Positions 252 to 16,038 of a DNA stretch of 64,000 bases are shown one piece after another. Where the stretch lies: assembly GCF_014873755.1 (NCBI RefSeq), contig NZ_JADBEG010000001.1, positions 2,482,501 through 2,546,500 of the forward strand, read 5' to 3'. Position 1 is the stretch's first letter. The number at the start of each line of letters is the position of its first letter. This DNA is from Amycolatopsis lexingtonensis. Lineage in GTDB: Bacteria; Actinomycetota; Actinomycetes; Mycobacteriales; Pseudonocardiaceae. The notes under the pieces are model-generated. The model was not told where the DNA came from. It searched no databases and worked only from the letters and a program-made list of their open reading frames with translations. A program made the translations under genes and the position numbers.

Positions 252-265
252 TGAAACACGTTCTA
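252..265. promoter_or_regulatory. KstR-like operator upstream of the oxidoreductase
   Basis: The 14 bases TGAAACACGTTCTA fit TnnAACnnGTTnnA, the published KstR-type (TetR) consensus of mycolic actinobacteria. The site lies between TTGAAA (244-249) and TAATAC (264-269), which resemble -35 and -10 elements with a short 14-bp gap, so a bound repressor would cover the promoter. The GTG start at 279 follows about 10 bases after the -10-like element and has no Shine-Dalgarno sequence, suggesting a leaderless transcript. That a KstR/FadR-type TetR protein binds here is inference; no such regulator is in the window. Confidence 0.5.
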
Positions 266-278
266 ATACGCTCGCGTC

Positions 279-1136: not shown

Positions 1137-1201
1137 GCGCAGCCTTCGCCGCCCAGCGCACTGACACCGCCCACCGCCCCGGGCCGAAGCCGACCGCAAA
1201 G

Positions 1202-1254
1202 GTCTTGAATGAGTCATTCAGGACCCCTCAAGACCTGAATGACTCATTCAAGAC
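1202..1254. repeat. Inverted-repeat element A, copy 1
   Basis: A 53-base palindromic element whose arms GTCTTGAATGAGTCATTCAGG and their near-complement enclose a short loop. It sits between the convergent oxidoreductase and MFS genes. Two further copies lie at 52309-52367 and 60336-60388. The right arm has C where perfect pairing would ask for another base and the loop differs from the other copies. It could act as a bidirectional terminator in RNA, but the same sequence recurring at unrelated loci indicates a dispersed element. Confidence 0.8.
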
Positions 1255-1288
1255 ACCACCGGGCCTCGCGAGGCGGCCGTCGAGCGCG

Positions 1289-2674
1289 TCAGCTCTTGAC
1301 GCTCATGCCCTGACGAGCGCGCAGGTCGAGCTCGATCTGCTCCAGCGTGCGGCCCTTCGTCTCCGGGACCAGCCACTTCGTGAGCACGAACAGCACCACG
1401 TTGATACCCGCGAACAGGAACATCGAGCCGCCGATGCCGAGGGACTTCGGGTCGGAGATGATCGGGAACACCGCGCTCACGATGCCCGTCGCCGCCCAGA
1501 GGACCACGCTGCTCACGCTCATGCCCGTCGCGCGGACCTTGAGCGGGAAGACCTCGGACATCATCACCCAGACGACCGCGCCCCAGCCGAGTTCGTAGCC
1601 GACCAGGTAGAGCACCATCATCACCAGCATCAGGATGCCGCGCAGGCCGGTGTCGTGGACGTTGAGCACGATCAGCCCCGCCGCGGCGAGCGTCAGCACC
1701 ATGATCACGTTGCCGATGAGCAGCAGCGGCTTGCGGCCCCAGCGGTCCACCACGAACACGACCCACGCGGTGAACAGGAACTTCGTGACGCCGAGCAGCA
1801 CGCCGGACAGCAGCGCGGCCTGCGTGGCGAAGCCGAGCCCGATGAGCATGGTCGGGAAGTAGGCGTTGATCGCGTTGACGCCGCTGAACTGCTGGCCCAC
1901 CGCGAGCAGCAGGGCCACGAACAGCATCGGCCGCACCCAGCCGGTGAACAGGTCGCGGAAGCGCGGCTTCTCTTCGGTGTCCATCCGGATGACGTCGCGG
2001 ATGGTCGAGATCTCCTCGTCGAGGTTCACCGAGTTGCCGTGGGCGCTGGCCAGCACCCGCCGGGCCTCCTCCTCGCGGCCGTTCTTCACCAGCCAGCGCG
2101 GGGTCTCGGGCAGGAACGCCAGCCCGACGAGCAGGATCGCCGCGGGCACGATCGCGCCGGCGAACATCCAGCGCCACGCCGAAACCGGGCCGAGCCAGTA
2201 GCTCACCAGGAACGCGATCAGGATGCCGCTGACGATGAAGATCTGGTTCAGCGCGCCCATCGCGCCGCGCAGCCGGGCCGGCGCCAGTTCGGACAGGTAC
2301 GTCGGCACCGTCGACGAAGAAAGCCCGATGCCCAGCCCGATCACCAGCCGGGAAAGCACCAGCAGCGTGAACGTCGGCGAGAACGTCGCCGCCAGGGTGC
2401 CCACGATGACGATCGCCGCCGCGACCATGATCGTGCGGCGCCGGCCGAGCGCTTCGTTGGTGCGGCTGGAGAACAGCGCGCCGATGATGGCACCGACCGA
2501 CAGGCTGGCAGTGATCACGCCCTTGTCCCAGCTGGTCAGCGCCCACAGTTTCCCGATGAACGGGAGCACCCCGGAGATCACGCCGAGGTCGTAGCCGAAG
2601 AGGATGCCGCCGAGCGCACCGAAGAAGTACAAGGTGGTCCGGCTGATGTGCCGCGCCGGGGCTGTCTGCGTCAT
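1289..2674 (-). CDS. MFS sugar porter (sugar:proton symporter)
   Basis: A 461-residue, 12-helix permease of the sugar porter branch of the major facilitator superfamily. It shows GGILFGYDLGVISG in the first helix, the loop motif RRTIM after helix 2, PETPRWL after helix 6, DRWGRKPLL in the second half, and PETKGRTLEQIE at the C-terminus, all hallmarks of xylose/glucose/arabinose symporters. AGAGGCGAC precedes the ATG. It is divergent from the GH74 xyloglucanase gene, so it may import a xyloglucan-derived monosaccharide such as xylose or glucose; this is inference from position. No CebR box lies close to its start; the nearest is at 2895, about 220 bases away. Confidence 0.9.
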   Translation of the reverse strand: MTQTAPARHISRTTLYFFGALGGILFGYDLGVISGVLPFIGKLWALTSWDKGVITASLSVGAIIGALFSSRTNEALGRRRTIMVAAAIVIVGTLAATFSPTFTLLVLSRLVIGLGIGLSSSTVPTYLSELAPARLRGAMGALNQIFIVSGILIAFLVSYWLGPVSAWRWMFAGAIVPAAILLVGLAFLPETPRWLVKNGREEEARRVLASAHGNSVNLDEEISTIRDVIRMDTEEKPRFRDLFTGWVRPMLFVALLLAVGQQFSGVNAINAYFPTMLIGLGFATQAALLSGVLLGVTKFLFTAWVVFVVDRWGRKPLLLIGNVIMVLTLAAAGLIVLNVHDTGLRGILMLVMMVLYLVGYELGWGAVVWVMMSEVFPLKVRATGMSVSSVVLWAATGIVSAVFPIISDPKSLGIGGSMFLFAGINVVLFVLTKWLVPETKGRTLEQIELDLRARQGMSVKS

Positions 2675-2786
2675 TGCCGGGTCGCCTCTTTCGTAGGTCC
2701 AGTCCAGCCAGCGGGCACCACACTCACACGCCGGAAAAAGCCCGACAAGGCCGCGCGCGATAACAATTCAGTCACCTGATCGATGT

Positions 2787-2798
2787 TCACATATGTGA
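2787..2798. promoter_or_regulatory. Perfect 12-bp palindrome in the MFS-GH74 divergent region
   Basis: TCACATATGTGA lies in the 250-base divergent region, about 112 bases from the MFS start and 128 from the GH74 start. It is AT-rich compared with its surroundings, as operators often are. It is not a CRP site (the half-sites are reversed) and not a CebR box. A regulator for the MFS gene is possible; no binder can be named. Confidence 0.3.
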
Positions 2799-2894
2799 CG
2801 GCGCAAAACCGGCGTCGAATCCACTGTGGACAGTGCCGGGCGACGAAATCATCGAACGCTTTACAACGTTCAAAGCACTGGTTTACCGTCGCCC

Positions 2895-2908
2895 TGGAAG
2901 CGCTCCCA
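2895..2908. promoter_or_regulatory. CebR box upstream of GH74 gene
   Basis: TGGAAGCGCTCCCA matches the CebR operator TGGGAGCGCTCCCA at 13 of 14 positions. It lies 17 bases before the GTG at 2926, so a bound LacI-family repressor would block transcription or its start. Cellobiose-type inducers release CebR in Streptomyces. Confidence 0.8.
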
Positions 2909-2925
2909 GAGTTGTGGAGGCCGAC

Positions 2926-5640
2926 GTGAGACGACTGCTTTCCCCCAGCGCACCAAGGGCTCGCCGGCTCCTCGCGGCCGCGCTCGCCCTCCTCCTGCCC
3001 ACCGCCGTCGCGATCACCGCCGGCGCGCCGGCCGCCCCCGCGGCGCCGGCGTCCTACACCTGGCGCAACGCGGAGATCGGCGGCGGCGGGTTCGTCCCCG
3101 GCATCGTCTTCAACCAGACCGAACCCGGGCTCGTCTACGCCCGCACCGACATCGGTGGCGCGTACCGGTGGAACCCCACGACCGGCCGCTGGCTGCCGCT
3201 GCTCGACTCGGTCGGCTGGACCGACTGGGGCCACAACGGCGTCGTCAGCCTCGCCACCGACGCCGTCGACCCGAACCGCGTGTACGTCGCCGCGGGCATG
3301 TACACCAACAGCTGGGACCCGAACAACGGCGCGATCCTGCGTTCGGCCGACCGCGGCGCCACGTGGCAGGCGGCCGCGCTGCCGTTCAAGCTCGGCGGCA
3401 ACATGCCCGGGCGCGGCATGGGCGAGCGGCTCGCGATCGACCCGAACCGCGACAGCGTCCTGTACCTCGGCGCGCCCAGCGGCAACGGGCTCTGGCGCAG
3501 CACCGACTCCGGCGTCACGTGGGCGAAGGTGACCGCGTTCCCGAACCCCGGCAACTACGCGCCCGACCCGAGCGACCCGTCGGGCTACTCCAGCGACAAC
3601 GAAGGCGTCACGTGGGTGACGTTCGACCCCACGACCGGCACGCGGGGCAGCACCACGCAGACGATCTACGTCGGCGTCGCGGACAAGCAGAACACCGTCT
3701 ACCGCAGCACCGACGGCGGCACGACGTGGGCGCGGCTGGCCGGCCAGCCCACCGGGTACCTGGCGCACAAGGGTGTCCTCGACCCGGTCGGTGGCTACCT
3801 CTACCTCACGACCAGCGACACCGGCGGCCCCTACGACGGCGCGAAGGGCGACGTCTGGAAGTACGCCACGAAGACCGGCGCCTGGACGCGGATCAGCCCC
3901 ATCCCGTCCGACAGCGCGGACGACTACTTCGGCTACAGCGGCCTGACGATCGACCGGCAGCACCCGAACACGCTCATGGTCGCCACGCAGGTGTCGTGGT
4001 GGCCGGACGTGATCTTCTTCCGCAGCACCGACGGCGGCGCCACCTGGACGCGGATCTGGGACTTCTCGAGTTATCCCGACCGGACACTGCGCTACACCCA
4101 GGACATCTCTTCGGTGCCGTGGCTGACCTTCGGCGTCCAGGCCGCTCCCCCGGTGCCGTCGCCGAAGCTCGGCTGGATGACCGAGTCCGCGGAGATCGAC
4201 CCCTTCGACTCGAACCACTTCCTCTACGGCACCGGCGCGACGATCTACGGGTCGTCCGACCTCACGAAGTGGGACAGCGGCGGGAAGATCACGCTCAAGC
4301 CGGTCGTCGGCGGCCTCGAAGAGACCGCCGTGCTCGACCTGATCAGCCCGCCCTCGGGCGCTCCCCTGCTCTCCGGCCTCGGCGACATCGGCGGGTTCCG
4401 GCACGACAGCCTCGACACCGTCCCGGCCACCATGTACACCCAGCCGGTCTTCACCACGACCACCAGCCTGGACTACGCGGAGCTGAGCCCGGCGACGATC
4501 GTCCGGGCCGGCACGCTCGACCGGAGCGCCCGGCCCAACGACAACCGGATCGCGTTTTCCACCGACGGCGGCAAAAACTGGTTCCAGGGCGCGGAGCCGT
4601 CCGGCGGCGCGAGCGGCGGCACGGTCGCCGCGGCCGCCGACGGCAGCCGGTTCGTGTGGAGCCCGGACGGCACCCCGGTGAGCTATTCGGTGGGCTTCGG
4701 CTCGTCCTGGACGGCGTCCGCGGGCATCCCGGCCGGCGCGGTGGTCGAGTCCGACCGCGTCGACCCCAAGCGGTTCTACGGCTTCGCGGCCGGGAAGTTC
4801 TACGTCAGCACCGACGGCGGTGCGACCTTCACCGCGACCGCGGCCACCGGCCTGCCCACCGGCTCCGCGCACTTCAAGGCGATGCCCGGGGTGGCGGGCG
4901 ACCTGTGGCTCGCCGGCGGGTCGGGGACGGCGTACGGCCTCTGGCATTCGACCGACTCCGGAGCGTCCTTCACGAAGCTGTCCGGGGTCACCGAGGCCGA
5001 CAACATCGGGTTCGGCAAAGCCGCCAGCGGCCGGACGTATGCGACGTTATACACGATCGCGAAGATCGGCGGGGTGCGCGGGATCTTCCGGTCGGACGAC
5101 GCGGGCGCATCCTGGACGCGGATCAACGACGACCTGCACCAGTACGGCAACATCGGGGCGGCGATCACCGGGGATCCGCGGGTGTACGGCCGGGTCTACG
5201 TGGGCACGAACGGGCGCGGCGTGATCGTGGGCGACTCCGGGGGCACCGAGCCCCCGCCGACGACGACCACCACGTCCGCCCCGCCCACGACAACGACGAC
5301 GACCACGCCGCCGCCGTCAGGATTCTGCACGGCGGCCTACACGGTCACGAACCAGTGGCAGGGCGGGTTCCAGGCCTCGGTGAAGGTGGGGAACACCGGC
5401 ACCGCCGCGGTGAGCGGCTGGACGGTGGCGTGGACGTTCGCGGACGGCCAGCGGGTGACGCAGGCGTGGAACGCGACGGTCACCCAGACCGGCGCGGCGG
5501 TGTCGGCGGTGGACGCGGGCTGGAACAAGACGATCCCCGCGGGCGGCAGCGCCGAGTTCGGCTTCACCGGCAGCGCCGGCACGGCCAACACCAGGCCCGC
5601 CGCGATCTCGCTCAACGGCCGGCCCTGCACCACGTCCTGA
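2926..5640 (+). CDS. Secreted GH74 xyloglucanase with CBM2
   Basis: A 904-residue extracellular endo-xyloglucanase. A Sec signal peptide (RR near the N-terminus, Leu/Ala core, Ala-rich end at about residue 40) is followed by two seven-bladed propellers of family GH74. TDIGGAYRW at about 73-81 and GLGDIGGF at about 484-491 carry the two catalytic aspartates. Repeated STDGG/STDSG Asp-box motifs occur throughout. A Thr/Pro linker (about 773-798) leads to a C-terminal type 2 carbohydrate-binding module. An upstream in-frame ATG exists at 2833, but the GTG at 2926 begins the signal peptide and has GGAGG just before it. The CebR box directly upstream places it in the cellulose regulon. The product cleaves beta-1,4 bonds of branched glucan in plant walls. 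Confidence 0.92.
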   Translation: MRRLLSPSAPRARRLLAAALALLLPTAVAITAGAPAAPAAPASYTWRNAEIGGGGFVPGIVFNQTEPGLVYARTDIGGAYRWNPTTGRWLPLLDSVGWTDWGHNGVVSLATDAVDPNRVYVAAGMYTNSWDPNNGAILRSADRGATWQAAALPFKLGGNMPGRGMGERLAIDPNRDSVLYLGAPSGNGLWRSTDSGVTWAKVTAFPNPGNYAPDPSDPSGYSSDNEGVTWVTFDPTTGTRGSTTQTIYVGVADKQNTVYRSTDGGTTWARLAGQPTGYLAHKGVLDPVGGYLYLTTSDTGGPYDGAKGDVWKYATKTGAWTRISPIPSDSADDYFGYSGLTIDRQHPNTLMVATQVSWWPDVIFFRSTDGGATWTRIWDFSSYPDRTLRYTQDISSVPWLTFGVQAAPPVPSPKLGWMTESAEIDPFDSNHFLYGTGATIYGSSDLTKWDSGGKITLKPVVGGLEETAVLDLISPPSGAPLLSGLGDIGGFRHDSLDTVPATMYTQPVFTTTTSLDYAELSPATIVRAGTLDRSARPNDNRIAFSTDGGKNWFQGAEPSGGASGGTVAAAADGSRFVWSPDGTPVSYSVGFGSSWTASAGIPAGAVVESDRVDPKRFYGFAAGKFYVSTDGGATFTATAATGLPTGSAHFKAMPGVAGDLWLAGGSGTAYGLWHSTDSGASFTKLSGVTEADNIGFGKAASGRTYATLYTIAKIGGVRGIFRSDDAGASWTRINDDLHQYGNIGAAITGDPRVYGRVYVGTNGRGVIVGDSGGTEPPPTTTTTSAPPTTTTTTTPPPSGFCTAAYTVTNQWQGGFQASVKVGNTGTAAVSGWTVAWTFADGQRVTQAWNATVTQTGAAVSAVDAGWNKTIPAGGSAEFGFTGSAGTANTRPAAISLNGRPCTTS

Positions 5641-5656
5641 CACGCACGGGCGGGAA

Positions 5657-5693
5657 GGGGGTTTCAACCCACCCCCAGGCGGTTGAAACCCCC
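5657..5693. terminator. Strong stem-loop after GH74 gene
   Basis: A perfect 13-bp stem (GGGGGTTTCAACC paired with GGTTGAAACCCCC) with an 11-base loop, 16 bases after the stop codon. There is no long T-run, as is usual in actinobacteria. A weaker stem (TTTTCGC/GCGAAAA, 5813-5850) follows in the same gene-free gap before the convergent MDR gene. Confidence 0.65.
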
Positions 5694-5913
5694 TCCCCGC
5701 GCCCCCAGCCCGGACGCTCCGCCCGAGCAGCCGCAGCCTGCTCGGGCGATGTCCTGGTATCCACCACTCTCCCCGGTGCCGTCAGCGGCCGCCATTCCTG
5801 CCGAAACGCGACTTTTTCGCCCGAACCCACCACCGCTGACCTGCGAAAAGGAGGGCAGGGGGTACGGATATACCCAGCCGGGACGGCAAAAGTTACCCGG
5901 GGCGGCGGGCCAC

Positions 5914-6915
5914 TCAGTCGCTTTCGAGCACGACCTTGCCGATGTGGCTGCCGGACTCGAGGTGCTTGAGCGCCTCTTCGAGCTCGTCGAAGGCGAACCG
6001 GCGGTCGATCACCGGCCGGAGCCCGGAGTGCTCGATCGCCCGGTTCATCGCCTGGAACGTCTCGCGGGAGGCGTTGGTGAGCCCGCGCAGGGTCAGCTGC
6101 TTGACCAGCACGAGGATCGGGTCGGCGCCGCCCTCGTGGGTCAGGACGCCGGCGACGCTGACGTGCCCGCCGTAGCGCGCCGCGAGCATCGACTGGCCGA
6201 TCGTGCCGCCCCCGCCGACGTCGACGACGTGGTCGACACCGCCGCCGGTCAGCTCGGCCACCGCGGGACCCCACTCCGGCGTCGTCGCGTGGTTGAGCGT
6301 CTGCGCGGCGCCCAGCTCGCGGAGCCGCTCGAGCTTCTCGTCCGAACTCGACGTCGACACGACGTGGGCGCCGCCGAGCGCGGCGAACTGCAGCGCGAAC
6401 GTGGACAGGCCGCCACTGCCCAGGGTGAGCACGGTCTGGCCCGGCACGAGCCGGCCTTCCTCGACGACCGCGCGCCACGCCGTGACGCCGGCGCTGGGCA
6501 GCGTCGCGGCTTCGGCGTAGTCGAGGTGCGCCGGGACGCCGACGAGCGCGTCCTCGGCGAAGACGGCGTACTCGGTGAGCACGCCGTCGAGGGTGCCGGC
6601 CAGGTCGTCCGCCGTCTTCTCGGGCGTGCCGGGGCCGGACAGCCAGTCCGGGAAGTAGGTCGCGGCCACCCGGTCGCCGGTGGCCCAGGCGCGCACGCCG
6701 TCGCCGACCGCGACGACCTCGCCCGCGCCGTCGGACAGCGGCACGACGTCCGGCTTCACCGGCTTGGGGTAGAAACCCTTGACGATCATCAGGTCGCGGG
6801 CGTTGACCGCCCACCCGCGCAGCCGGACCAGGACCTGCCCGGGACCGGGTTCGGGAACGTCGCGCTCGCCCGAGACGAGCCCGGCGCCGGGACGGGGCAG
6901 CGAAAAGTACTTCAC
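5914..6915 (-). CDS. MDR-family NAD(P)-dependent alcohol dehydrogenase/reductase
   Basis: A 333-residue medium-chain dehydrogenase/reductase, last gene of the five-gene AfsA unit. It has the GroES-like fold at the N-terminus, with VNARDLMIVKGFYP as in zinc-free quinone-oxidoreductase-like members. The Rossmann motif GSGGLSTFALQFA lies at about residue 160, and VVDVGGGGT follows. The zinc-binding cysteines of classic alcohol dehydrogenases are absent. The GTG at 6915, preceded by GGAG, gives the normal N-terminus VKYFSLPRPG and starts 26 bases after the HAD gene stop. In butyrolactone pathways an NADPH reductase completes the signal molecule; this gene is placed to do so, but its substrate is unproven. 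Confidence 0.85.
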   Translation of the reverse strand: MKYFSLPRPGAGLVSGERDVPEPGPGQVLVRLRGWAVNARDLMIVKGFYPKPVKPDVVPLSDGAGEVVAVGDGVRAWATGDRVAATYFPDWLSGPGTPEKTADDLAGTLDGVLTEYAVFAEDALVGVPAHLDYAEAATLPSAGVTAWRAVVEEGRLVPGQTVLTLGSGGLSTFALQFAALGGAHVVSTSSSDEKLERLRELGAAQTLNHATTPEWGPAVAELTGGGVDHVVDVGGGGTIGQSMLAARYGGHVSVAGVLTHEGGADPILVLVKQLTLRGLTNASRETFQAMNRAIEHSGLRPVIDRRFAFDELEEALKHLESGSHIGKVVLESD

Positions 6916-6941
6916 GGCGGCTCCAAGGGTGCGGGGAATCC

Positions 6942-7643
6942 TCAACGAAGCCAGTGTGTCGAAGTCGCGAGCTCCGCGTCGACGATCTCCAGGAGTTCCG
7001 GGGTCAATTCGGCGAGCGACGCCGCGAAGTGGCGGACGCCGTGGCCGGCCATGAAGTCCCGCTGCCGCGCGTGGGCGGGGCTCGACGGGAACCCGATGAA
7101 CCCGGCGCCGTGCGCGCGGGCGTCCTGGGCCACCCGGCTGACGTCGTCGACGAACACGATCTCGTCGAAGCCGGCGCCGAGCACGGTCCGGGTGATGTGG
7201 GCGACGCCGGGGCGGTGCTCGTTGATGCTCACGTACGGCACCTCGGGGTCGAGCAGGTCCACGAAGTCACCGAGGTACCGGTCGAAGGTGTGCTCGCGGG
7301 TCCGCCCGCCGTAGCAGACCAGCCGCACCGGGAGCTTCGAGAGCGCTTCCAGGCACTCCCGCGCCCCTTCGGCGACGCGGATCGGGTGCTCGGCCAGGTA
7401 CTCCTGCCGCGCCGCCCACAGCTGCTTGAGCGTCTCTTCGGCCGGCTGGTCGAGGCCGCAGAGCGCGGTGACCTTTTCCGCGACGACGATGTCGCGCAAC
7501 CCGATCACGTCCCGCTCGGCCGCGGCGTCGTAGACCCCGCCGTGGCCGGTGACGAACCGGGCGATCATGGCCAGGTAGGTGTCGTCGATGAGCACGCCGT
7601 CGCAGTCGAGCGCGACGACGCGCAGCTTCGCCAGGCCGCTCAC
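6942..7643 (-). CDS. HAD-superfamily hydrolase (phosphatase-like)
   Basis: A 233-residue cytoplasmic HAD hydrolase. Motif I is LDCDGVLIDD near residue 13, with the nucleophile aspartate and a helical cap insertion. Motif II/III features include VCYGGRTRE, and VFVDDVSR supplies the metal-binding acidic pair near residue 180. GTG at 7643 overlaps the stop of the preceding gene (GTGA), which indicates translational coupling. HAD enzymes of this type dephosphorylate small metabolites. Because AfsA-type condensation yields a phosphorylated butenolide ester, a co-expressed phosphatase is a sensible partner; that link is inference. Confidence 0.8.
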   Translation of the reverse strand: MSGLAKLRVVALDCDGVLIDDTYLAMIARFVTGHGGVYDAAAERDVIGLRDIVVAEKVTALCGLDQPAEETLKQLWAARQEYLAEHPIRVAEGARECLEALSKLPVRLVCYGGRTREHTFDRYLGDFVDLLDPEVPYVSINEHRPGVAHITRTVLGAGFDEIVFVDDVSRVAQDARAHGAGFIGFPSSPAHARQRDFMAGHGVRHFAASLAELTPELLEIVDAELATSTHWLR

Positions 7644-8443
7644 CGCTGCGCGAACACTTCCCGCGCGGCGCCGATCGCGTTGAGCGCGGCCGGGAACCCG
7701 CAGTAGAACGCCAGGTGCAGGATGGTCTCCACGGCCTCCTTCTCGGTGCCGCCGACGTTGAGCAGCCCGTGGAGGTGCACCTTCAGCTGCGGCAGCGCCG
7801 TGCCGAGCGCGACGCACGCGGCGATCGTGACGAGCTCGCGGTGGCGCAGGCTCAGCCCCGGCCGGGTGTAGACCTCGCCGAAGGTGAACTCGATGATGTA
7901 GGTGGCCAGGTCGGGCGCGATGTCCGCCAGTGCGACGGCGACCTGCTCCCCTGCCTCGCCGTCGACCGCCTTCATCGCGGCCAGGCCGCGCTCGTAGCGG
8001 TCTTCGATGCCCGCCCACGCCACTTCGGCGGGCTCGGGCGCCGGCTCGTCCTCGGGGAGGCCCTCGAACGCCGCCTTGAGCGCCGTGAGCGCGTTGAGCG
8101 TGGCGGGGAACCCGGCGAACGAGCTGACGTGGATGACCGCCTCGACCAGCTGGCGGCGGGTGCAGCCGACGTTGAGCGCGGCCTTGGCGTGGAACTGCAG
8201 CTGCGAGCCCGCGTACCCGAGCGCGGTGAGCGCGGCCACGGTCGTCAGCTGCCGCTCCGGGAGCTCGAGCCCGGGCCGGTGGTAGACGTCGCCGTAGATG
8301 AACCCGACGCACCGCTCGCCGAACTCGGCCTCGCCGATGCTCTCGAACAGGTCCAGCACGGCCGGCCGGTCTGCCCCGCCGAGCTGCTGGATGAGTTTCA
8401 GGCCCTGGGCGAAGGACGCCGAACGGTCCGGCTCTTCGGACAT
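7640..8443 (-). CDS. Tandem carboxymuconolactone decarboxylase-domain protein
   Basis: A 267-residue protein made of two AhpD/CMD-like helical repeats (about residues 40-125 and 170-262). Each carries a YGDVY/FGEVYTRPGL segment, a (R)xLVTIAA-like helix, and an HxxxxLNVG stretch (AALNVGCTRRQLVEA; GLLNVGGTEKEAVET). The CxxC redox pair of AhpD is missing, so a lactone- or beta-keto-acid-handling role like the gamma-carboxymuconolactone decarboxylases fits better than peroxidase reduction. It is third in the operon, 35 bases after the afsA-like gene, with coupled overlap to the HAD gene. A lactone-acting enzyme beside an AfsA homologue is notable, but no reaction can be assigned. Confidence 0.8.
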   Translation of the reverse strand: MSEEPDRSASFAQGLKLIQQLGGADRPAVLDLFESIGEAEFGERCVGFIYGDVYHRPGLELPERQLTTVAALTALGYAGSQLQFHAKAALNVGCTRRQLVEAVIHVSSFAGFPATLNALTALKAAFEGLPEDEPAPEPAEVAWAGIEDRYERGLAAMKAVDGEAGEQVAVALADIAPDLATYIIEFTFGEVYTRPGLSLRHRELVTIAACVALGTALPQLKVHLHGLLNVGGTEKEAVETILHLAFYCGFPAALNAIGAAREVFAQR

Positions 8444-8478
8444 CGTGGTGTGGTTTCCCTTCCGGAGTGGGTTTCGGG

Positions 8479-9318
8479 TCAGCCGAGGTAGGCGCGGGTG
8501 GCCTGGTCGGCCTTGCGGCGTTCCAGGGTGTCGATGCGCCCCTGCGCGATCATCGAGTACTCGATGACGGCGGTGGCCACGGTGCGCTCGTGCTGGCGCA
8601 CCGCCGTGGTGGCGCGGAACTTCAGGTTGGTTTCGCGGCCGAGGTCGGACTCTTCGATGAGCGACTCGACCGTGGCCGGGAGCGGGAACAGGAAGTCCTG
8701 GAAGGACAGGTCGATGCGCTTCCAGACCCCGGCGTACGCGGCCGTGGCCAGGCCCGGGCGGATCGCGGTCTCGAACTGGGCGATGCAGATCTGCCGCATC
8801 GCCTCGACGATCACGATGCCCTGCACGTGCTCGCCGGTGTGGTGGTCGAGGACCAGCTCGTTGTCCCGGTGGATCCGCAGCTCGGCCCGGCAGTGCCCGG
8901 TCGACGGGCTGTGCACGCCGGCCAGCAGGACGTTCTCGGGGCGGTCCTTGTGCACGAGGACCGAGCGTTCCGGGAGGCGCCGGAACGCCGCCGGGTCCGC
9001 GAAGGTCACGGCGGCGCCGCTCTTCTCGCGGGCCGCTTCGAGCAGGTCGTGGTCGGTCGCGTCGACGCCCTGGCCGAGGTGGACGACCCAGTGGCAGCCG
9101 TCGGCTTCGGGGCCGTCGCCGGGGTCTCCGGCGGCGAGCAGCGCCAGCAGCCCGGAGACGGTGAGGACCCGGTCGCCGCGGGCGAACTGCGCGAAGCGGT
9201 CGGCGACCACCACCACGTCGCGGCGGGTGTAGCCCTCGCGCGCCCGGGTGTCCGCGGCGCCCGGGACGTCGTCCGGTGCCACCGGGGACGTCATCGCCCG
9301 GGTCGGGTCGCCCGTCAC
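8479..9318 (-). CDS. AfsA-type hotdog protein (butyrolactone synthase family)
   Basis: A 279-residue protein with two AfsA repeats. The first centres on VLVHKDRPENVLLAG (about residue 125). The second block, HTGEHVQGIVIVEAMRQ, is the signature of the A-factor synthase family, and the second hotdog domain runs on to EYSMIAQGRID. AfsA/ScbA condense a beta-ketoacyl thioester with dihydroxyacetone phosphate to start gamma-butyrolactone signal synthesis. GTG at 9318 overlaps the stop of the upstream regulator (GTGA), so translation is coupled; an internal ATG at 9294 is an alternative start, and neither has a Shine-Dalgarno sequence. No TetR-type receptor gene adjoins, unlike the classical arrangement. 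Condensing activity is inferred from family only. Confidence 0.82.
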   Translation of the reverse strand: MTGDPTRAMTSPVAPDDVPGAADTRAREGYTRRDVVVVADRFAQFARGDRVLTVSGLLALLAAGDPGDGPEADGCHWVVHLGQGVDATDHDLLEAAREKSGAAVTFADPAAFRRLPERSVLVHKDRPENVLLAGVHSPSTGHCRAELRIHRDNELVLDHHTGEHVQGIVIVEAMRQICIAQFETAIRPGLATAAYAGVWKRIDLSFQDFLFPLPATVESLIEESDLGRETNLKFRATTAVRQHERTVATAVIEYSMIAQGRIDTLERRKADQATRAYLG

Positions 9319-10760
9319 TGGCGAGCCGAAGCGTGGGCGTCCAGGACCGCCTCGGCGAGGTCGCGGGCGGTCGCCGCCGCGCGCCAGCGGGGCTCGTTCA
9401 GTTCGGTCGCCAGCACCTTCAGCATCGCGTGCACCATGTCCGGTTGCTTGCCGACGTCCGCGGAGAGCACCTGCTCCACCTGCGCGGCGGCGGCGTCGAG
9501 GTCGCCCAGCCTCAGGTGCGCGCGGCCCGTGTCGATCCGGATCATCGGGTCCATGGCCTCCCAGCGGTGTTCCCGGGGCAGCTTCTCGTAGGCCTCGCGG
9601 GCAGTCGTGTACTCGTGCAGCGCGGCGGACGCCTGCCCGACCGACAGCAGGGACGTCCCCGCCATGTAGTGCCGCCGGTCCTTCGTGATGTTGAAGAACT
9701 GGTCTTCCCCGCCCGCGCCGACGTCCGGGTCCTCGATGGCGGTCCAGCGCGCGATCGCATCCAGCACCTGCGGCTCGGCCTGCACCGACGACCAGCCGCG
9801 CGCTTCGGCGAGGATCAGCGGCGCGTCCGTGAGGCGCGCGCCGACGTGGTAGTTGAGCCCGTCGGCGGCCAGCCGCGCGGACTCGACGCCGTTGCCGGAC
9901 CAGAACGCCACCCGCGCCTGCGACGTGCGCACCCAGCGGCGGGCCAGGAGGTCGTCGGCGTACTGGGTGTAGAGCCACGCCGCGGAGTTCAGCTGGCGGG
10001 AGAGCCGGTACCGGCCGAGATCGCCCGCGATCCACGCCATCATCGCCGAGCACTTCGCCCCGACGAGCAGCAGGTCCTGCGTCTGCTTCGGCCGCTGCCT
10101 GCCCTTCAGCAGCGCCGAGGTCCGCTCGTCGATGACGGCGAGCTGGCCGAGGATCGCGTCGGGCGCGGTGCGGGTGTAGGCGCCGCCCAGGAAGTCCAGG
10201 TCGGCCCACAGGTCGTCGAGCTGGACGTCGTCGACGTTCGTCGTGGTCAGCAGAATCGCGTCATCGAGCGCACTTGCCCCGATTTCGTCGTCCGGCTGGG
10301 CTTCACCGCGCGCGGCGGCACGAGCGGGCGGCGCGGGCGCCGGCGGCACCGCGGGTTCCGCGTCGGCGTGGTACTCGGCGAGGTCCTTGGCCGGCAGCTG
10401 CTCGAGATCTCGCAGGCCCAGCAGTGATTTCCAGCTCGTGCCGTACACCCCGGCCAGCACCCGCAGGGCCGCGACGGTCGGCCGGACGCCGCGTTCGGGC
10501 CACTGCTCGTACTCCCAGATCCGGGTGCCGCGCATGCCCGCGCGGGGATCGCCGGTCGCGGCGTTGTAGCGGTGCGCCGCGACGTCGAGCGAAAGCTCGG
10601 ACGCCAGCCGCCACGCGGTGCGCGGCGGAATCCCGCACTCGACCACCAGGTTCTCCGCCACCTTCGCCGGAATCGCCTCTTCGGGGAAGCCCAAGGCGGC
10701 CAGCCGGTCGCGCAGTTGTGCACGGTACGGCTTACTCCCTGGCTTGACCTGTCGGCTCAT
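9315..10760 (-). CDS. XRE-like regulator with TPR-type sensor domain
   Basis: A 481-residue cytoplasmic regulator. Residues 1-115 hold a helix-turn-helix region of the actinobacterial XRE-related type (RTAWRLASELSLD; RGTRIWEYEQWPERG; AALRVLAGVYGTSW). An Ala/Pro linker (about 130-155) leads to an all-helical region of tetratricopeptide-like repeats (about 175-470) that ends close to the stop. Such proteins sense a ligand or partner through the TPR arm. It is the first gene of the unit with the afsA-like gene and overlaps it by 4 bases. A long inverted repeat just upstream (10780-10811) is a likely autoregulatory site. It could be the receptor for whatever the operon makes, which is inference. 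Confidence 0.8.
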   Translation of the reverse strand: MSRQVKPGSKPYRAQLRDRLAALGFPEEAIPAKVAENLVVECGIPPRTAWRLASELSLDVAAHRYNAATGDPRAGMRGTRIWEYEQWPERGVRPTVAALRVLAGVYGTSWKSLLGLRDLEQLPAKDLAEYHADAEPAVPPAPAPPARAAARGEAQPDDEIGASALDDAILLTTTNVDDVQLDDLWADLDFLGGAYTRTAPDAILGQLAVIDERTSALLKGRQRPKQTQDLLLVGAKCSAMMAWIAGDLGRYRLSRQLNSAAWLYTQYADDLLARRWVRTSQARVAFWSGNGVESARLAADGLNYHVGARLTDAPLILAEARGWSSVQAEPQVLDAIARWTAIEDPDVGAGGEDQFFNITKDRRHYMAGTSLLSVGQASAALHEYTTAREAYEKLPREHRWEAMDPMIRIDTGRAHLRLGDLDAAAAQVEQVLSADVGKQPDMVHAMLKVLATELNEPRWRAAATARDLAEAVLDAHASARQ

Positions 10761-10779
10761 CGTTCACCCAGTGCGGTTC

Positions 10780-10811
10780 GGAGTACTGGTGCACACGGAA
10801 GACAGTACCCC
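10780..10811. promoter_or_regulatory. Inverted repeat upstream of the AfsA operon
   Basis: GGAGTACTG and CAGTACCCC pair at 8 of 9 positions around a 14-base spacer; the inner GTACTG/CAGTAC arms are perfect. The site lies 20-51 bases before the ATG of the HTH/TPR regulator, where a promoter operator is expected. Arm spacing of about two helix turns suits a dimeric HTH protein. The natural candidate binder is the regulator itself. Confidence 0.5.
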
Positions 10812-10955
10812 AGCGTGACGGCGGGGGCCCAGGGCGTCACCGATGCCGGAGCTGTGAGATTTCCGAGATGTTGAGCCCGCAACAAGGGTTTGCGCACGCG
10901 GCTTCGACGCGCGCGCGGGCCGATCCGTTCCACATAGGACTCGCCAGGGGAACAA

Positions 10956-10969
10956 TGAGAGCGCTCCCA
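10956..10969. promoter_or_regulatory. CebR box, distal copy before Cip1-like gene
   Basis: TGAGAGCGCTCCCA matches the CebR consensus at 13 of 14 positions. It is about 370 bases upstream of the Cip1-like start, too far to block that start directly. It may permit looping with the proximal box, or mark a second promoter. Confidence 0.65.
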
Positions 10970-11234
10970 TCCAGCCCGCACAACGCATCCCGCGCGACCC
11001 CCGGCGCGATCTTGGACCGGATTCCCGGAATCCACCCCAACGGCGGCACCGGCGGGCTCGCGGCGGTAGCGCAGCGCGATCACCGCACCCGTTGCCCGCC
11101 AACGGGTTCGGCCGTTCAGTACGGTTCAGTGGCCGCCCGCGGGCGGGACGGCACCGGAAACCGGGCCACCGGATCGCGGCACGTCCGGGTCCCGCTTTAC
11201 AAGACCGACATCCCGGGGTTACTTTTTCGGCGGC

Positions 11235-11248
11235 TGGAAGCGCTCCCA
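11235..11248. promoter_or_regulatory. CebR box, proximal copy before Cip1-like gene
   Basis: TGGAAGCGCTCCCA, identical to the GH74 box, ends 90 bases before the ATG at 11339. The position suits repression of the downstream promoter or its 5' leader. Confidence 0.8.
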
Positions 11249-11338
11249 TGCCAGGTCGCCTCGCCAGAACGCGGCCACCACCCAGGGGCGTCGTGGTGCA
11301 GGCCACGGCGCCCCTGTCCGCGTCCCGGGAGGAACCCG

Positions 11339-12487
11339 ATGCCCCGCAGGTTCGCCGGCGCCCTCGCCGCACTCTGCCTCGCCGCGGCGGGCACCACCGC
11401 GGTCCTCGCCGCCGGGCCGGCCGCCGCCGCGCCCGCGTGCTCGGTCGCCTACCGGGTCAACCAGTGGCAGGGCGGCTACACCGCCGACCTCACCGTGACC
11501 AACGGCGCGACGGCGCTCTCCTCGTGGACCCTCACCTGGCACTACGCCGGCACCCAGGCCGTCACGTCGGCCTGGAACGCCACCGTCCGCCAGTCCGGGA
11601 CCGCCGTCACCGCGGACAGCCTGCCCTACAACGCCGCCCTGCCCGCCGGCGGTTCCGTGTCGTTCGGCCTGCAGGGCACCGGCGGCGGTGCCGATCCCAC
11701 GGACTTCGCGCTCAACGGCGTCGCGTGCGGTGACCCCGCTCCCCCGGCCACGACCACCGCGACCACACCTATCACCCTGCCGACCACCACGACGTCCACG
11801 CCCCCGCCCGCGGGCTGCGCGGACACCGCGTTCTGCGACGACTTCGAGCAGCAGACCGGCGGCACCCCGGGCGGGCGCTGGACCGTCGGCGCGGCGAACT
11901 GCCAGGGCACCGGCACGGTGACCGTCGACAGCTCGGTGGCGCACTCGGGGACCCGCTCGGTCAAGGTCACCGGCCAGGGCGGCTACTGCAACCACGCGTT
12001 CCTCGGCACCGCCGTGACCGGCTCCGGCGTGCTGTACGGGCGCTTCTGGGTGCGCCACACCACGGCGCTGCCCACCGGGCACGTCGCGTTCCTGGCGATG
12101 CGCGACAGCACCGACGGCCGGGACCTGCGGGCCGGCGGGCAGAACCGCGCGCTGCAGTGGAACCGCGAGTCCGACGACGCCACCCTGCCCGCGCAGAGCC
12201 CGGCCGGCGTCGCCCAGAGCGTCCCGCTGCCGACCGGGGCCTGGTCGTGCTTCGAGTTCCGGCTCGACGGCGCGGCCGGGCAGCTCCGGACGTGGCTGGG
12301 CGGCACCGAGGTGCCTGGGCTCGTCGTCGACGGCGTCCCGACCGCCGACGTCGACCAGCAGTGGCTCGCCCGGTCCTGGCACCCGGCCGTGACCGACCTC
12401 CGCCTCGGCTGGGAGAGCTACGCCGGCGACGCCGACACGCTGTGGTTCGACGACGTCGCCGTGGGCGGCTCGCGGATCGGCTGCTGA
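11339..12487 (+). CDS. Secreted CBM2-linked Cip1-like protein (putative polysaccharide lyase fold)
   Basis: A 382-residue secreted protein. It has a signal peptide (1 to about 32, ending in an AAAA run), an N-terminal CBM2 (about 34-130, VNQWQGGYTADLTV), a Thr/Pro linker (about 131-160), then a jelly-roll domain to the end. This domain recalls Cip1 of Trichoderma reesei: FCDDFE at its start, VDSSVAHSGTRSVKV, GGYCNHAF, NRESDDATLP, LPTGAWSCFEF and WFDDVAVGGSRIGC at its end all correspond to Cip1 segments as I remember them. Cip1 is cellulose-induced and has a lyase-like fold with reported activity on uronic-acid glucans. GGGAGG six bases before the ATG fixes the start. The two CebR boxes upstream tie it to cellulose degradation. 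The precise substrate is unknown. Confidence 0.85.
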   Translation: MPRRFAGALAALCLAAAGTTAVLAAGPAAAAPACSVAYRVNQWQGGYTADLTVTNGATALSSWTLTWHYAGTQAVTSAWNATVRQSGTAVTADSLPYNAALPAGGSVSFGLQGTGGGADPTDFALNGVACGDPAPPATTTATTPITLPTTTTSTPPPAGCADTAFCDDFEQQTGGTPGGRWTVGAANCQGTGTVTVDSSVAHSGTRSVKVTGQGGYCNHAFLGTAVTGSGVLYGRFWVRHTTALPTGHVAFLAMRDSTDGRDLRAGGQNRALQWNRESDDATLPAQSPAGVAQSVPLPTGAWSCFEFRLDGAAGQLRTWLGGTEVPGLVVDGVPTADVDQQWLARSWHPAVTDLRLGWESYAGDADTLWFDDVAVGGSRIGC

Positions 12488-12488
12488 G

Positions 12489-13484
12489 CTACCGGGCGGC
12501 GATCCGGTCGATCTCGGCCAGCTCCTCGTCGGTGAACTCCAGGTTCGCGGTGGCCGCGACGGTGTTCTCCAGCTGCGCGACGCTGCTCGCGCCGATCAGC
12601 GCGGACGTGACGCGCCCGCGGCGCAGCACCCAGGCGATGGCGAGCTGGGCCAGCGTTTGCCCGCGCCGCTCGGCGACGTCGTTCAGCGCGCGGATCTTGT
12701 CCAGCGTCTCCTCGGTGAGGCGGTCGCGGGTCAGGAACGGGCTCGCGCCCGCCGCCCGCGAGTCGGCCGGGACGCCGTCGAGGTAGCGGTCGGTCAGCAG
12801 GCCCTGGCTCAGCGGCGAGTAGGCGATCGAGCCGGTGCCGTGCGCTTCGAGGGTGTCGAGGAGGCCGTCCTCGACCCACCGGTTGAGGATCGAGTACGAC
12901 GGCTGGTGGAGCAGCAGCGGCGTGCCCAGCTCGCGCAGCACCCGGATGGCGGCCTCGGTCTGCTCGGGCGAGTAGTTGGAGATCCCCGCGTACAGCGCCT
13001 TGCCCGACCGGACGGCGGTGTCGAGGGCACCCATGGTCTCCTCGATCGGCGTCTCCGGGTCCGGGCGGTGGGAGTAGAAGACGTCGAAGTGGTCCAGTCC
13101 GGTGCGGGCGAGGCTCTGGTCCAGGCTGGCGAGCAGGTTCTTGCGCGAGCCCCATTCGCCGTAGGGGCCGTCCCACATCAGGTAGCCCGCCTTGGACGAC
13201 ACCAGGATTTCGTCGCGGTAGGGCCGGAAGTCGGCCGCGTAGTGCCGCCCGAAGTTCGCCTCGGCCGCGCCGGGCGGCGGGCCGTAGTTGTTGGCCAGGT
13301 CGAAGTGCGTCACGCCGAGGTCGAACGCCCGGCGCAGCACCGCCCGCTGGACGTCGAGGGGCTTGTCGTCCCCGAAGTTGTGCCAGAGGCCGAGCGACAC
13401 GGCGGGCAGCTTCAGCCCGCTGCGCCCGGCCCGCCGGTACGGCATTTCCGCGTACCGGTCCCCGGCGGCGGCGAAAGGCGACAT
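12489..13484 (-). CDS. Aldo/keto reductase, YghZ-like
   Basis: A 331-residue NADPH-dependent aldo/keto reductase of the potassium-channel-beta/YghZ branch. It shows YRRAGRSGLKLPAVSLGLWHNFG at the start, THFDLANNYG with the catalytic Asp and Tyr, VSSKAGYLMWDGPYG with the catalytic Lys, and a YSHRPDPETPIEE strand with the His. YghZ-type enzymes reduce L-glyceraldehyde 3-phosphate and related aldehydes. It starts 27 bases after the AGE-family gene stop with GAGGAG as ribosome-binding site, so the two are co-transcribed. Its end is 1 base from the convergent Cip1-like stop. Substrate is uncertain; a role on sugar aldehydes fits the surroundings. Confidence 0.85.
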   Translation of the reverse strand: MSPFAAAGDRYAEMPYRRAGRSGLKLPAVSLGLWHNFGDDKPLDVQRAVLRRAFDLGVTHFDLANNYGPPPGAAEANFGRHYAADFRPYRDEILVSSKAGYLMWDGPYGEWGSRKNLLASLDQSLARTGLDHFDVFYSHRPDPETPIEETMGALDTAVRSGKALYAGISNYSPEQTEAAIRVLRELGTPLLLHQPSYSILNRWVEDGLLDTLEAHGTGSIAYSPLSQGLLTDRYLDGVPADSRAAGASPFLTRDRLTEETLDKIRALNDVAERRGQTLAQLAIAWVLRRGRVTSALIGASSVAQLENTVAATANLEFTDEELAEIDRIAAR

Positions 13485-13511
13485 GGTTCTCCTCAGTCGA
13501 TCACGGAAAGT

Positions 13512-14705
13512 CTAACGACGCGGGGCGAGCGCGCCGGCGAACGACGCGGCCGGCGGCAGCGCGGGCAGCAGCGTCGCCTGGTAGGCGTGGTAGATGTCCG
13601 GCTTGCCCGCCCACACCGTCGCGGCCGGGCGGTTCTCCGGGTCGAGTTCGTGGTGCCACGAGCCGAGTTCCCGATCGGCGAAGCAGGCTTCGGCGTGGGC
13701 GCACCACTCGCGGAACCGCTCGAGGTACGCCGGCTCGCCGGTTTCCTGGTGCAGCGTCCACGCGGCGGCGATCGCCTCCGCGACGACCCAGTGCAGCCGC
13801 GTGCGCACGACCGGCGTCCCGGCGAAGTCGGTGGTGTAGACGAATCCCGGGCGCCCGTCGACGGCCCAGCCGGTCCGGGTCGCGGTCTCGAACAGCGCCG
13901 CCGCGTCGGGGACGAGCCAGTCCGGCGCTTCGGCGCCGAGCGCACACTTGAGGTGCACGGCCAGGCGCGCCCACTCGAAGAGGTGCCCGATCGTCGCGCC
14001 GAACGGGCGGAAGGGGTGCGCGGGCTCGTCCCGGTTGAACTCCAGGCGCACCCGCCAGGCCGGGTCGTAGTGCTCGGGAAGCAGCCAGCCGTGCGCGCGG
14101 GCTTCGCCGTGCACCAGGTGGTCCACAATGGACAGCGCCCGGGTGGCCCAGACCCGGTCGCCGGTGACGTCGGCGGCGGCCAGGAACGCCTCGACGGTGT
14201 GCATGTTCGCGTTGGCCCCGCGGTAGTCCTCCAGGTGCGTCCAGCCGCGGTCCCAGACGTCGGCGACGCGCCCCGGCCCCGGCTCCCAGAAGCGGCGTTC
14301 GACGACGTCGAGCGCTTCGGCCAGCAGGTCTTCCGCGCCGTCGGCTCCGGCGGCCGCCGCGCTCGACGCGGCCAGGACGACGAAGGCGTGCTCGTAGGCA
14401 CGCTTCTCTGACAACGTTGTCGTCGCGTACCAGCCGCCGTGGCCGGGGTCGCGGAGCAGACCGGTCAGGGCCTCGACGCCGTGCGCGACCTGCGCTTCGG
14501 CCGCTTCGCCCTGCAGTTGCGCCAGCGCGAAGACGTGCGTCATCCGGCAGGTGATCCAGGTTTCGACGGGCCGGTCGAGCACCGGCCGGCCGGCGTCGTC
14601 AAGCCAGGCGAACCCGCCGCCGGGGTGCGCTGCCCGCGCGGCGAAGCCGAGCAGCCGGAGGGGTTCGGCCCGCACCCAGGCGGGGACCGGAGACGGACTT
14701 TCCAC
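13512..14705 (-). CDS. AGE-family sugar isomerase (mannose/YihS-like)
   Basis: A 397-residue (alpha/alpha)6-barrel protein of the N-acylglucosamine 2-epimerase superfamily. TCRMTHVFALA (near residue 55), IGHLFEWARLAVHL (about 235) and LGSWHHELDPE (about 365) hold the conserved Arg and His residues. The ending WAGKPDIYHAYQATLLP resembles YihS/mannose isomerase rather than cellobiose 2-epimerase. The likely reaction is aldose-ketose isomerisation of mannose-type sugars in the cytoplasm. GTG at 14705 with GAAAGG upstream is preferred to the TTG at 14741. It is divergent from the LPMO gene with a CebR box between them, so it may be cellobiose-induced. The true sugar could also be a disaccharide. 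Confidence 0.82.
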   Translation of the reverse strand: MESPSPVPAWVRAEPLRLLGFAARAAHPGGGFAWLDDAGRPVLDRPVETWITCRMTHVFALAQLQGEAAEAQVAHGVEALTGLLRDPGHGGWYATTTLSEKRAYEHAFVVLAASSAAAAGADGAEDLLAEALDVVERRFWEPGPGRVADVWDRGWTHLEDYRGANANMHTVEAFLAAADVTGDRVWATRALSIVDHLVHGEARAHGWLLPEHYDPAWRVRLEFNRDEPAHPFRPFGATIGHLFEWARLAVHLKCALGAEAPDWLVPDAAALFETATRTGWAVDGRPGFVYTTDFAGTPVVRTRLHWVVAEAIAAAWTLHQETGEPAYLERFREWCAHAEACFADRELGSWHHELDPENRPAATVWAGKPDIYHAYQATLLPALPPAASFAGALAPRR

Positions 14706-14812
14706 GCTGTGCCTTTCTCGGTGATCGACGACCTCCGCCAACGTAGGCCAAGGCGGCCGCCCCGGTCACCGCGGGCTGTTCCGGAAGTGACCGCCACCGC
14801 GTAAACTGACCT

Positions 14813-14826
14813 TGAGAGCGCTCCCA
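14813..14826. promoter_or_regulatory. CebR box between AGE isomerase and LPMO genes
   Basis: TGAGAGCGCTCCCA, 13 of 14 matches, lies 36 bases before the LPMO GTG and 108 bases from the divergent isomerase start. It could repress both. Confidence 0.8.
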
Positions 14827-14861
14827 GTCTTCGACGCACGCTACCCGACGAAGGGACAGAC

Positions 14862-15923: not shown

Positions 15924-15943
15924 CCGTCCGCTGTGGACCGTTC

Positions 15944-16032
15944 AAGCGCCCCAATGTGGCGTTCGGTGCGTCTGACGCACCGAACGCCACATTGGGTGCG
16001 CTGGACGCAACCAACGCCACATTGGGGCGCTT
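15944..16032. repeat. Inverted-repeat element B, copy 1
   Basis: An 89-base nested palindrome between the convergent LPMO and LacI genes. Outer arms AAGCGCCCCAATGTGGCGTT and the matching ending AACGCCACATTGGGGCGCTT enclose an inner perfect hairpin (GGCGTTCGGTGCGTC/GACGCACCGAACGCC) plus another half-unit. A nearly identical element lies in opposite orientation at 31642-31727. The outer arm is shared with the hairpin at 46321-46358. It may terminate both genes. Confidence 0.8.
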
Positions 16033-16038
16033 GGGGGC

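What the first reader, a model, noticed from the sequence alone, without database searches (positions are those of the whole stretch)
5914..10811. AfsA-type synthase operon paired with an HTH/TPR regulator, a HAD phosphatase, a reductase and a lactone-decarboxylase-like protein
Five minus-strand genes are tightly spaced or overlapping (GTGA overlaps at 9315-9318 and 7640-7643; gaps of 35 and 26 bases). Established knowledge: AfsA-family enzymes start gamma-butyrolactone signals, which then need dephosphorylation and reduction. This unit supplies an AfsA-like protein, a HAD hydrolase and an MDR reductase, with a CMD-domain protein that could act on the lactone. What is missing is the usual TetR receptor; in its place is an XRE-like TPR regulator translationally coupled to the synthase. 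Inference: a self-contained signal synthesis and sensing system of a new type.
Basis: partly seen in the sequence, partly recalled or inferred. Interest (0 to 1): 0.78.

Follow-up and report, generated by a model that had tools for sequence, protein, structure and literature searches.

The report
AfsA signal operon with TPR regulator
A conserved set of genes in soil actinobacteria looks able to make a hormone-like lactone signal, but carries an unusual kind of gene switch where the usual receptor gene would be expected.

Summary
Five minus-strand genes (5914-10760, Amycolatopsis) form a tight operon: XRE-like/TPR regulator, AfsA-like hotdog enzyme, double-CMD protein, HAD phosphatase, Cys-free MDR reductase. 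In 60 Amycolatopsis genomes the regulator, AfsA-like and HAD orthologues occur in the same 18. The set recurs, diverged, in Planosporangium, Streptomyces and a Micromonospora-type genome, the last without CMD.

The HAD family lies beside an ScbR receptor gene in 13 of 13 Streptomyces plasmid loci viewed, and beside ScbA/BarX in 12 of 13; by gene order it includes SrrP. The synthase is atypical: one hotdog, matching the C-terminal AfsA repeat, behind an unassigned ~110-residue region.

No ScbR gene was found near any of the 18 operons, against 17 of 25 two-hotdog loci. In 9 of 18 genomes the operon AfsA is the only one and no ScbR passed the cut-off. In 2 of 3 other-genus loci a SARP activator gene lies just downstream.

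Best reading: a butenolide/butyrolactone-type signal operon regulated by a co-inherited TPR protein. That the TPR protein senses the product is inference. New variant of a known kind.

The parts
9315..10760 (-). XRE-like HTH/TPR regulator, 481 aa; distant relative of the NsdA-type family
   Evidence: NF053720 NsdA family 53.1 bits, cut-off 75; TPR_16 under cut-off; orthologues in the same 18 of 60 Amycolatopsis genomes as the synthase
8479..9318 (-). AfsA-like enzyme, 279 aa (GTG start overlapping the regulator stop): unassigned N-terminal region of ~110 residues plus one AfsA hotdog
   Evidence: PF03756 at residues 121-254; profile aligns only with the C-terminal repeat of two-hotdog AfsA; D158, H159, H164, G167, E172, R175, Q176 invariant in 22 subfamily members and aligned with the two-hotdog set
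7640..8443 (-). double carboxymuconolactone-decarboxylase-like (CMD) protein, 267 aa
   Evidence: PF02627, two stretches; TIGR02425 PcaC 124.9 bits, under its cut-off of 155.7; closest solved structure by sequence 4g9q
6942..7643 (-). HAD phosphatase of the family found beside ScbA/ScbR genes on Streptomyces plasmids, 233 aa, with DxD (D13, D15) and DD (D166, D167)
5914..6915 (-). MDR-superfamily reductase, 333 aa, no cysteine in the translation and so no Cys zinc ligands
10761..10811 (-). upstream region: candidate promoter/operator with GTACTG...CAGTAC arms and a block conserved up to the start codon
   Evidence: Alignment of 16 upstream regions; one exact copy in the genome and two 3-mismatch sites, none in the reversed control

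Best explanation
The operon is a self-contained AfsA-type signal unit. The single-hotdog AfsA-like enzyme condenses dihydroxyacetone phosphate with a 3-ketoacyl thioester to give a phosphorylated butenolide. The HAD enzyme removes the phosphate. The Cys-free MDR enzyme reduces the ring double bond or the side chain, and the CMD protein is an optional tailoring or turnover enzyme. The XRE-like/TPR protein, whose gene overlaps the synthase gene by four bases, regulates the operon and most likely senses the product. Shown here: genes, order, conservation, co-inheritance, AfsA signature residues, phosphatase family association, absence of a nearby ScbR gene. Inferred: every catalytic step, export, autoregulation and ligand sensing.
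For: (1) TPR, AfsA-like and HAD orthologues occupy the identical 18 of 60 Amycolatopsis genomes. (2) Across 24 distinct loci, TPR, AfsA-like and HAD lie together in 24 of 24, CMD in 23 of 24, MDR in 16 of 16 where the fetched flank reaches it. (3) Relatives of the HAD on Streptomyces plasmids lie within 6 kb of ScbR in 13 of 13 viewed records and of an annotated ScbA/BarX in 12 of 13 (13 of the 19 records found). One has the srr gene order, where PMC7564063 names srrP a phosphatase gene. (4) The hotdog keeps the D-H/H/G/E-R-Q signature of the AfsA C-terminal repeat. (5) An AfsA-like PKS domain was shown in vitro to condense 3-ketothioesters with DHAP, and SabP and SabD are described there as required for SAB biosynthesis (PMC7756379, passages). 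(6) 0 of 18 operon loci have an ScbR gene within 5 kb, against 17 of 25 two-hotdog loci; 9 of 18 operon genomes have no other AfsA-domain locus and no ScbR over cut-off. (7) A SARP-type activator gene (BTAD) lies directly downstream of the operon in L064, and 1.5 kb downstream in L038, followed there by ketosynthase and ACP genes. (8) dN/dS below 0.6 in all five genes.
Against: The synthase lacks the first AfsA repeat and fails the ScbA/BarX equivalog model (26.5 of 200 bits). No structure could be predicted. Many sister enzymes sit in what look like FabH-type metabolite clusters rather than dedicated signal loci. I know of no ligand for the TPR family, and its candidate operator occurs exactly only at its own operon in this genome, so no downstream regulon is visible. 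8 of 18 operon genomes, the window's own among them, carry an ScbR gene elsewhere. Among the ten window neighbours checked there is no SARP or polyketide gene. No product is known.
Confidence: 0.5

Rival explanations
1. The operon makes an AfsA-type butenolide, furan or lipid that is an end product (a small secondary metabolite), and the TPR protein is a pathway-specific regulator answering to growth state or another ligand.
For: 20 of 25 loci of more distant single-hotdog relatives lie within 8 kb of a second HAD type and 12 of 25 of FabH, as in biosynthetic clusters (the query genes come from one of these loci). The regulator's nearest named relatives, NsdA-type (below cut-off), have no ligand that I know of (recalled).
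Against: No relatives of the sister clusters' FabH, ACP, second HAD or TetR were found in 16 operon loci (window 1-20000 and 15 loci; L038 has an unrelated polyketide set downstream). The operon's HAD is of the type found beside signal receptors.
Confidence: 0.3
2. The product is a signal, but its receptor is an ordinary TetR/ScbR protein encoded elsewhere, and the TPR protein only fine-tunes the operon.
For: The window's genome has one ScbR-family gene over cut-off at G000:C1:2340851, about 150 kb from the operon; 8 of 18 operon genomes have at least one.
Against: 10 of 18 operon genomes have no ScbR over cut-off, 9 of them with no other AfsA locus. The ScbR scan scored only 44 candidates per genome, so misses are possible.
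Confidence: 0.12
3. The hotdog protein is a thioesterase or dehydratase-like enzyme of an unrelated catabolic operon, with CMD and MDR degrading a lactone.
For: Weak FabA-like matches (PF07977) in 3 of 22 members; CMD proteins act on lactones in aromatic catabolism (general knowledge).
Against: All 22 members match the AfsA family, the signature residues are retained, and the HAD family association is with AfsA/ScbR loci.
Confidence: 0.06

Closest known systems
Gamma-butyrolactone / butenolide signal systems of Streptomyces (AfsA-ArpA, ScbA-ScbR, SrrX-SrrA)
   Same: AfsA-domain synthase, phosphatase of the plasmid SrrP-like family, a reductase, and a regulator gene beside the synthase
   Different: One hotdog instead of two; HTH/TPR regulator instead of TetR; an MDR reductase, where PMC5735094 describes GblC, the short-chain dehydrogenase GblD and the epimerase-like GblE (the protein family of GblC was not checked); CMD protein added; all genes in one directional operon with overlaps
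SRB system of S. rochei (srrX, srrO, srrP, srrG, srrA)
   Same: HAD relative of SrrP by gene order on pSGRIFU1 (45% identity over 95%)
   Different: The operon has no P450, no SrrG-type dehydrogenase and no SrrA receptor gene
PKS-appended AfsA-like domain (PBS) of gladiostatin/gladiofungin
   Same: AfsA-like domain condensing 3-ketothioester with DHAP, with phosphatase genes in the cluster (PMC7756379, PMC7756420; passages read)
   Different: Part of a modular PKS; the product is described there as an antifungal or cytotoxic compound
Single-hotdog AfsA-like proteins of Nocardia, Streptomyces, Amycolatopsis and Micromonosporaceae (clades II and III here)
   Same: Similar architecture, 24-44% identity
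   Different: 0 of 27 loci have the TPR regulator or the SrrP-like HAD (25, L096 and L097); many have another HAD type, some FabH or a TetR gene
NsdA-type HTH/TPR regulators
   Same: Near full-length profile match at 53.1 bits
   Different: Below the curated cut-off of 75; located in an AfsA operon

Membership tests
AfsA/ScbA GBL synthases | PF03756 AfsA hotdog over cut-off | tested here: met
   65.2 bits, cut-off 24
AfsA/ScbA GBL synthases | Two AfsA repeats | tested here: not met
   One stretch, residues 121-254; only the C-terminal repeat aligns
AfsA/ScbA GBL synthases | NCBIfam ScbA/BarX equivalog cut-off | tested here: not met
   26.5 bits, cut-off 200
AfsA/ScbA GBL synthases | Conserved E-x-x-R-Q signature of the hotdog | tested here: met
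   E172, R175, Q176 invariant in 22 subfamily members and aligned with the two-hotdog set; the catalytic role of E/R in ScbA is recalled
AfsA/ScbA GBL synthases | DHAP + 3-ketoacyl thioester condensation | not testable with these tools
   Needs enzyme assay
GBL signal system | TetR-family ScbR/ArpA receptor gene beside the synthase | tested here: not met
   0 of 18 operon loci within 5 kb; 17 of 25 two-hotdog loci
GBL signal system | Extracellular lactone acting at low concentration | not testable with these tools
   No metabolite data
SrrP-like HAD phosphatases | Sequence relation and HAD catalytic motifs | tested here: met
   34-45% identity over 95-99% to 19 plasmid records; D13-x-D15 and D166-D167 present
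NsdA-family regulators | NF053720 cut-off of 75 bits | tested here: not met
   53.1 bits
4-carboxymuconolactone decarboxylase PcaC | TIGR02425 cut-off of 155.7 bits | tested here: not met
   124.9 bits
RRNPP peptide-sensing regulators | HTH plus TPR receptor with a cognate peptide gene | not tested
   Only weak HTH and TPR matches were obtained; no peptide gene was sought

The most novel reading that the evidence does not exclude
The first AfsA-type lactone signalling circuit whose receptor is not a TetR repressor but an XRE-like/TPR protein, fed by a new single-hotdog class of synthase, co-inherited as one operon across part of Amycolatopsis and sporadically in Micromonosporaceae and Streptomyces, there sometimes beside SARP and polyketide genes.
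Probability: 0.38. Interest if true: 0.82.

Novelty: new variant of a known kind. Interest (0 to 1): 0.62.

Why it matters
Butyrolactone signals control antibiotic production, and the known receptors are TetR-family proteins (PMC5735094, PMC4748050, passages read). A conserved operon that keeps the AfsA gene set but carries a different regulator class would widen what counts as such a system. It would also give a testable candidate in a genus where A. mediterranei was reported to make IM-2-type autoregulator activity (Choi et al. 2003, as described in PMC4748050 and PMC5735094). The subfamily also offers a compact one-hotdog enzyme for studying AfsA chemistry.

Tried and rejected
Regulon search: the upstream motif occurs exactly once in the genome, with two 3-mismatch sites, so no regulon is claimed. 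Paralogues of the TPR protein (28-31% identity by blastp, 6 loci) show no AfsA-like gene among the neighbours printed, about 10 kb. Six TetR genes near more distant enzymes match the ScbR model only at 35-47 bits, cut-off 150, so I do not call those loci GBL-receptor pairs. A link to the rifamycin/ansamycin producers that appear among carriers was considered and not pursued; the window neighbours are mostly cellulose-degradation and sugar genes. Contig-length matching of AfsA and TPR clusters gave 38 of 63 on contigs of 4 kb or more; the other 25 are uninformative because clusters are represented by one contig and both searches were capped. Structure-based work was not possible.

Literature: no paper pairing AfsA with NsdA or CMD for such an operon (2 and 1 papers, seen as listings only); searches listed none that describes it, judged by title and start of abstract; (BprA) returned none. 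One search listed 20 of 49. Subscription papers are not covered, so absence from print is not claimed more widely. PMC13367870 (alkyloxazole, passages) proved unrelated.

Full report
What is there. The window lies in a 10.74 Mb single-contig genome (G000:C1:2482501-2546500). The genus Amycolatopsis follows from the relatives: the 12 named loci with 73% or more identity to the synthase are all Amycolatopsis. On the minus strand, five genes run from 10760 to 5914: a 481-aa XRE-like/TPR regulator, a 279-aa AfsA-like protein, a 267-aa double-CMD protein, a 233-aa HAD protein and a 333-aa MDR reductase. The MDR translation has no cysteine, so Cys zinc ligands are absent. This fits the quinone-oxidoreductase/enoyl-reductase side of the family; its best NCBIfam match is quinone_pig3, 153.8 bits, under its cut-off of 296.8.

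Conservation. In 60 Amycolatopsis genomes the AfsA-like protein at about 70% identity or more is in 18; five further genomes have only weaker relatives, so that 23 of 60 match at E 0.001. The regulator orthologue (83% or more) and the HAD orthologue (85% or more) are in exactly the same 18. The remaining hits are regulator paralogues at 31-34% (one in a genome without the operon), one regulator fragment at a contig end in an operon genome, and a second HAD at 43% in G027. G154 shares its family with the Planosporangium genome (G792; its locus is identical DNA to L038), and its regulator looks nearly the same as that of Micromonospora rifamycinica. CMD is present in 23 of 24 (absent from the L064 operon), and MDR in the 16 of 16 whose flank reaches it. 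Identities outside the genus are 52-73%. In 11 of the 12 named Amycolatopsis loci flanking genes of the window are found; L033 is too short to tell. So the operon is inherited at a fixed site in this group. Elsewhere it is rare in the samples: 1 of 393 other genomes of the class sample had a match above 50% identity (six candidates scored per genome), and 2 of 300 in the family of G154. dN/dS is 0.12-0.58 over seven comparisons; the synthase has the highest dN in 7 of 7, though not always the highest ratio.

The synthase. PF03756 matches once, at residues 121-254. Profile comparison with nine two-hotdog proteins aligns it only to their C-terminal repeat (probability 97.9). The signature residues of that repeat (D-H, H, G, E-x-x-R-Q) are invariant in 22 subfamily members. 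The first ~110 residues have no consistent Pfam match. The database search found 125 relatives among the 8000 candidates scored, 120 listed: a close clade (47% or more; species names from Amycolatopsis, Streptomyces, Micromonospora, Krasilnikovia, Dactylosporangium, Planosporangium), a second group at about 37-43% (Nocardia, Rhodococcus, Streptomyces), and a third at about 31-36%.

Sister clusters. I looked at 27 loci of more distant single-hotdog relatives. None has the TPR regulator or the SrrP-like HAD. In the 25 tabulated, within 8 kb, 20 have another HAD type, 12 a FabH, 8 a relative of one TetR gene and 4 a CMD protein (38-55% identical to the window's). The query genes for these counts came from one of the loci (L067), and several loci are close relatives of each other. 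L096 and L097 gave no AfsA match at the setting and were judged. So, in what I sampled, the architecture with TPR regulator and SrrP-like HAD belongs to the close clade alone.

The phosphatase. Searching plasmids with the HAD protein gave 19 records, all Streptomyces. I viewed 13, leaving out six whose identity and E-value equal, or nearly equal, those of a viewed one. An ScbR gene lies within 6 kb in 13 of 13 and an annotated ScbA/BarX gene in 12 of 13. On pSGRIFU1 the order is synthase, P450, HAD, ScbR, SDR, which is the order srrX (orf85), srrO, srrP, srrA, srrG given in PMC7564063 (passages read). So the window's HAD is a relative of SrrP by synteny, 45% identical to its pSGRIFU1 counterpart. 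A two-hotdog AfsA cluster in an Amycolatopsis (L044) also has this HAD type directly behind the synthase (42%). [quoted passage not shown] This is the basis for the proposed first two steps.

The receptor question. Of 47 AfsA-domain loci in the 60 genomes, 25 have two hotdogs, and 17 of these have an ScbR gene over cut-off within 5 kb. Of the 18 operon loci none has; nor have the four other single-hotdog loci. The Fisher test (p about 3e-6) treats related genomes as independent and is only a guide. In 12 of 18 operon genomes the operon enzyme is the only AfsA-domain locus, and in 9 of these no ScbR over cut-off was found. The scan scored 44 TetR candidates per genome, so a miss is possible. 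The window's own genome is not among the nine: it has one ScbR gene about 150 kb away.

Neighbours that point to signalling. In L064 the gene directly downstream of the MDR gene, on the same strand, encodes a SARP-type activator (BTAD plus Trans_reg_C). In L038 such a gene lies 1.5 kb downstream of the MDR gene and is followed by two ketosynthases, an ACP and an acetyl-CoA carboxylase-like gene. L039 has a LysR regulator, an FAD monooxygenase and an MFS transporter instead, and the ten window neighbours checked include no SARP. Butyrolactone receptors often act through SARP genes (SrrA to SrrY, PMC7564063), so this fits a signal role in 2 of 3 loci outside the genus, without proving it.

The regulator and its site. 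In the listing the regulator family drops from 58% to 30% identity with nothing between; with the paralogues (31-34%) it is still a well-bounded family. Its match to the NsdA family model is below cut-off. Upstream of the operon the right arm GTACTCCG is kept in 12 of 13 Amycolatopsis; the left arm alternates between GTACTG (8) and TAGGGT/TAGTGT (5), as a -10 element would. The full motif occurs once in the genome, with two 3-mismatch sites. Local autoregulation is therefore the modest reading, and no regulon can be named.

Mechanism and confidence (my estimates). Chemistry of AfsA type with dedicated dephosphorylation: about 0.75. Product acts as a signal: about 0.65. TPR protein is the sensor: about 0.4. 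The combined statement is given 0.5 because it allows the regulator to act without proven ligand binding.

Known or new. Where sources name them, the proteins are called AfsA-related hotdog protein or A-factor biosynthesis protein, and hypothetical protein or XRE family regulator. In the searches made I saw no paper describing this operon. IM-2-type activity reported for A. mediterranei (described in PMC4748050 and PMC5735094; passages read) makes a link attractive. An orthologue of the regulator is listed for an A. mediterranei record (P0152); whether the strain of the 2003 report has the operon was not tested.

Noticed in passing
L118, L119, L120, L121, L122, L137, L139 (HAD genes): In the Streptomyces plasmid SrrP-like HAD proteins aligned, the first Asp of the DxD motif is Asn in 7 of 8 members with a complete start (L138 keeps Asp; L135 is annotated too short), while the operon type keeps DxD. 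Their catalytic nucleophile is puzzling.
   Followed up: partly
L038:14835-20337 and L064:5672-6538: SARP-type activator genes beside the operon in Planosporangium (followed by two ketosynthases, ACP and an acetyl-CoA carboxylase-like gene) and in the Micromonospora-type genome.
   Followed up: partly
L042, L043, L067, L069, L071, L096, L150-L153, L165, L168: A recurring actinobacterial gene set around single-hotdog AfsA-like enzymes with a TTQGP-motif protein, often an LLVTE-motif protein (the L067 copies have no Pfam match), and in many of them FabH and a second HAD type. Product unknown to me.
   Followed up: partly
   Followed up: partly
L123-L128: Paralogous HTH/TPR regulators at about 30% identity, without AfsA-like genes among the neighbours printed.
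   Followed up: partly
window 2914-5640, 10955-12487, 14862-15923: The operon sits among proteins with cellulose-binding domains: CBM2 with BNR repeats, Cip1-like with CBM2, LPMO with CBM2.
   Followed up: no
P0145: A regulator 84% identical to the window's is filed under Streptomyces sp. MN03-5084-2B, perhaps a misnamed Amycolatopsis.
   Followed up: no
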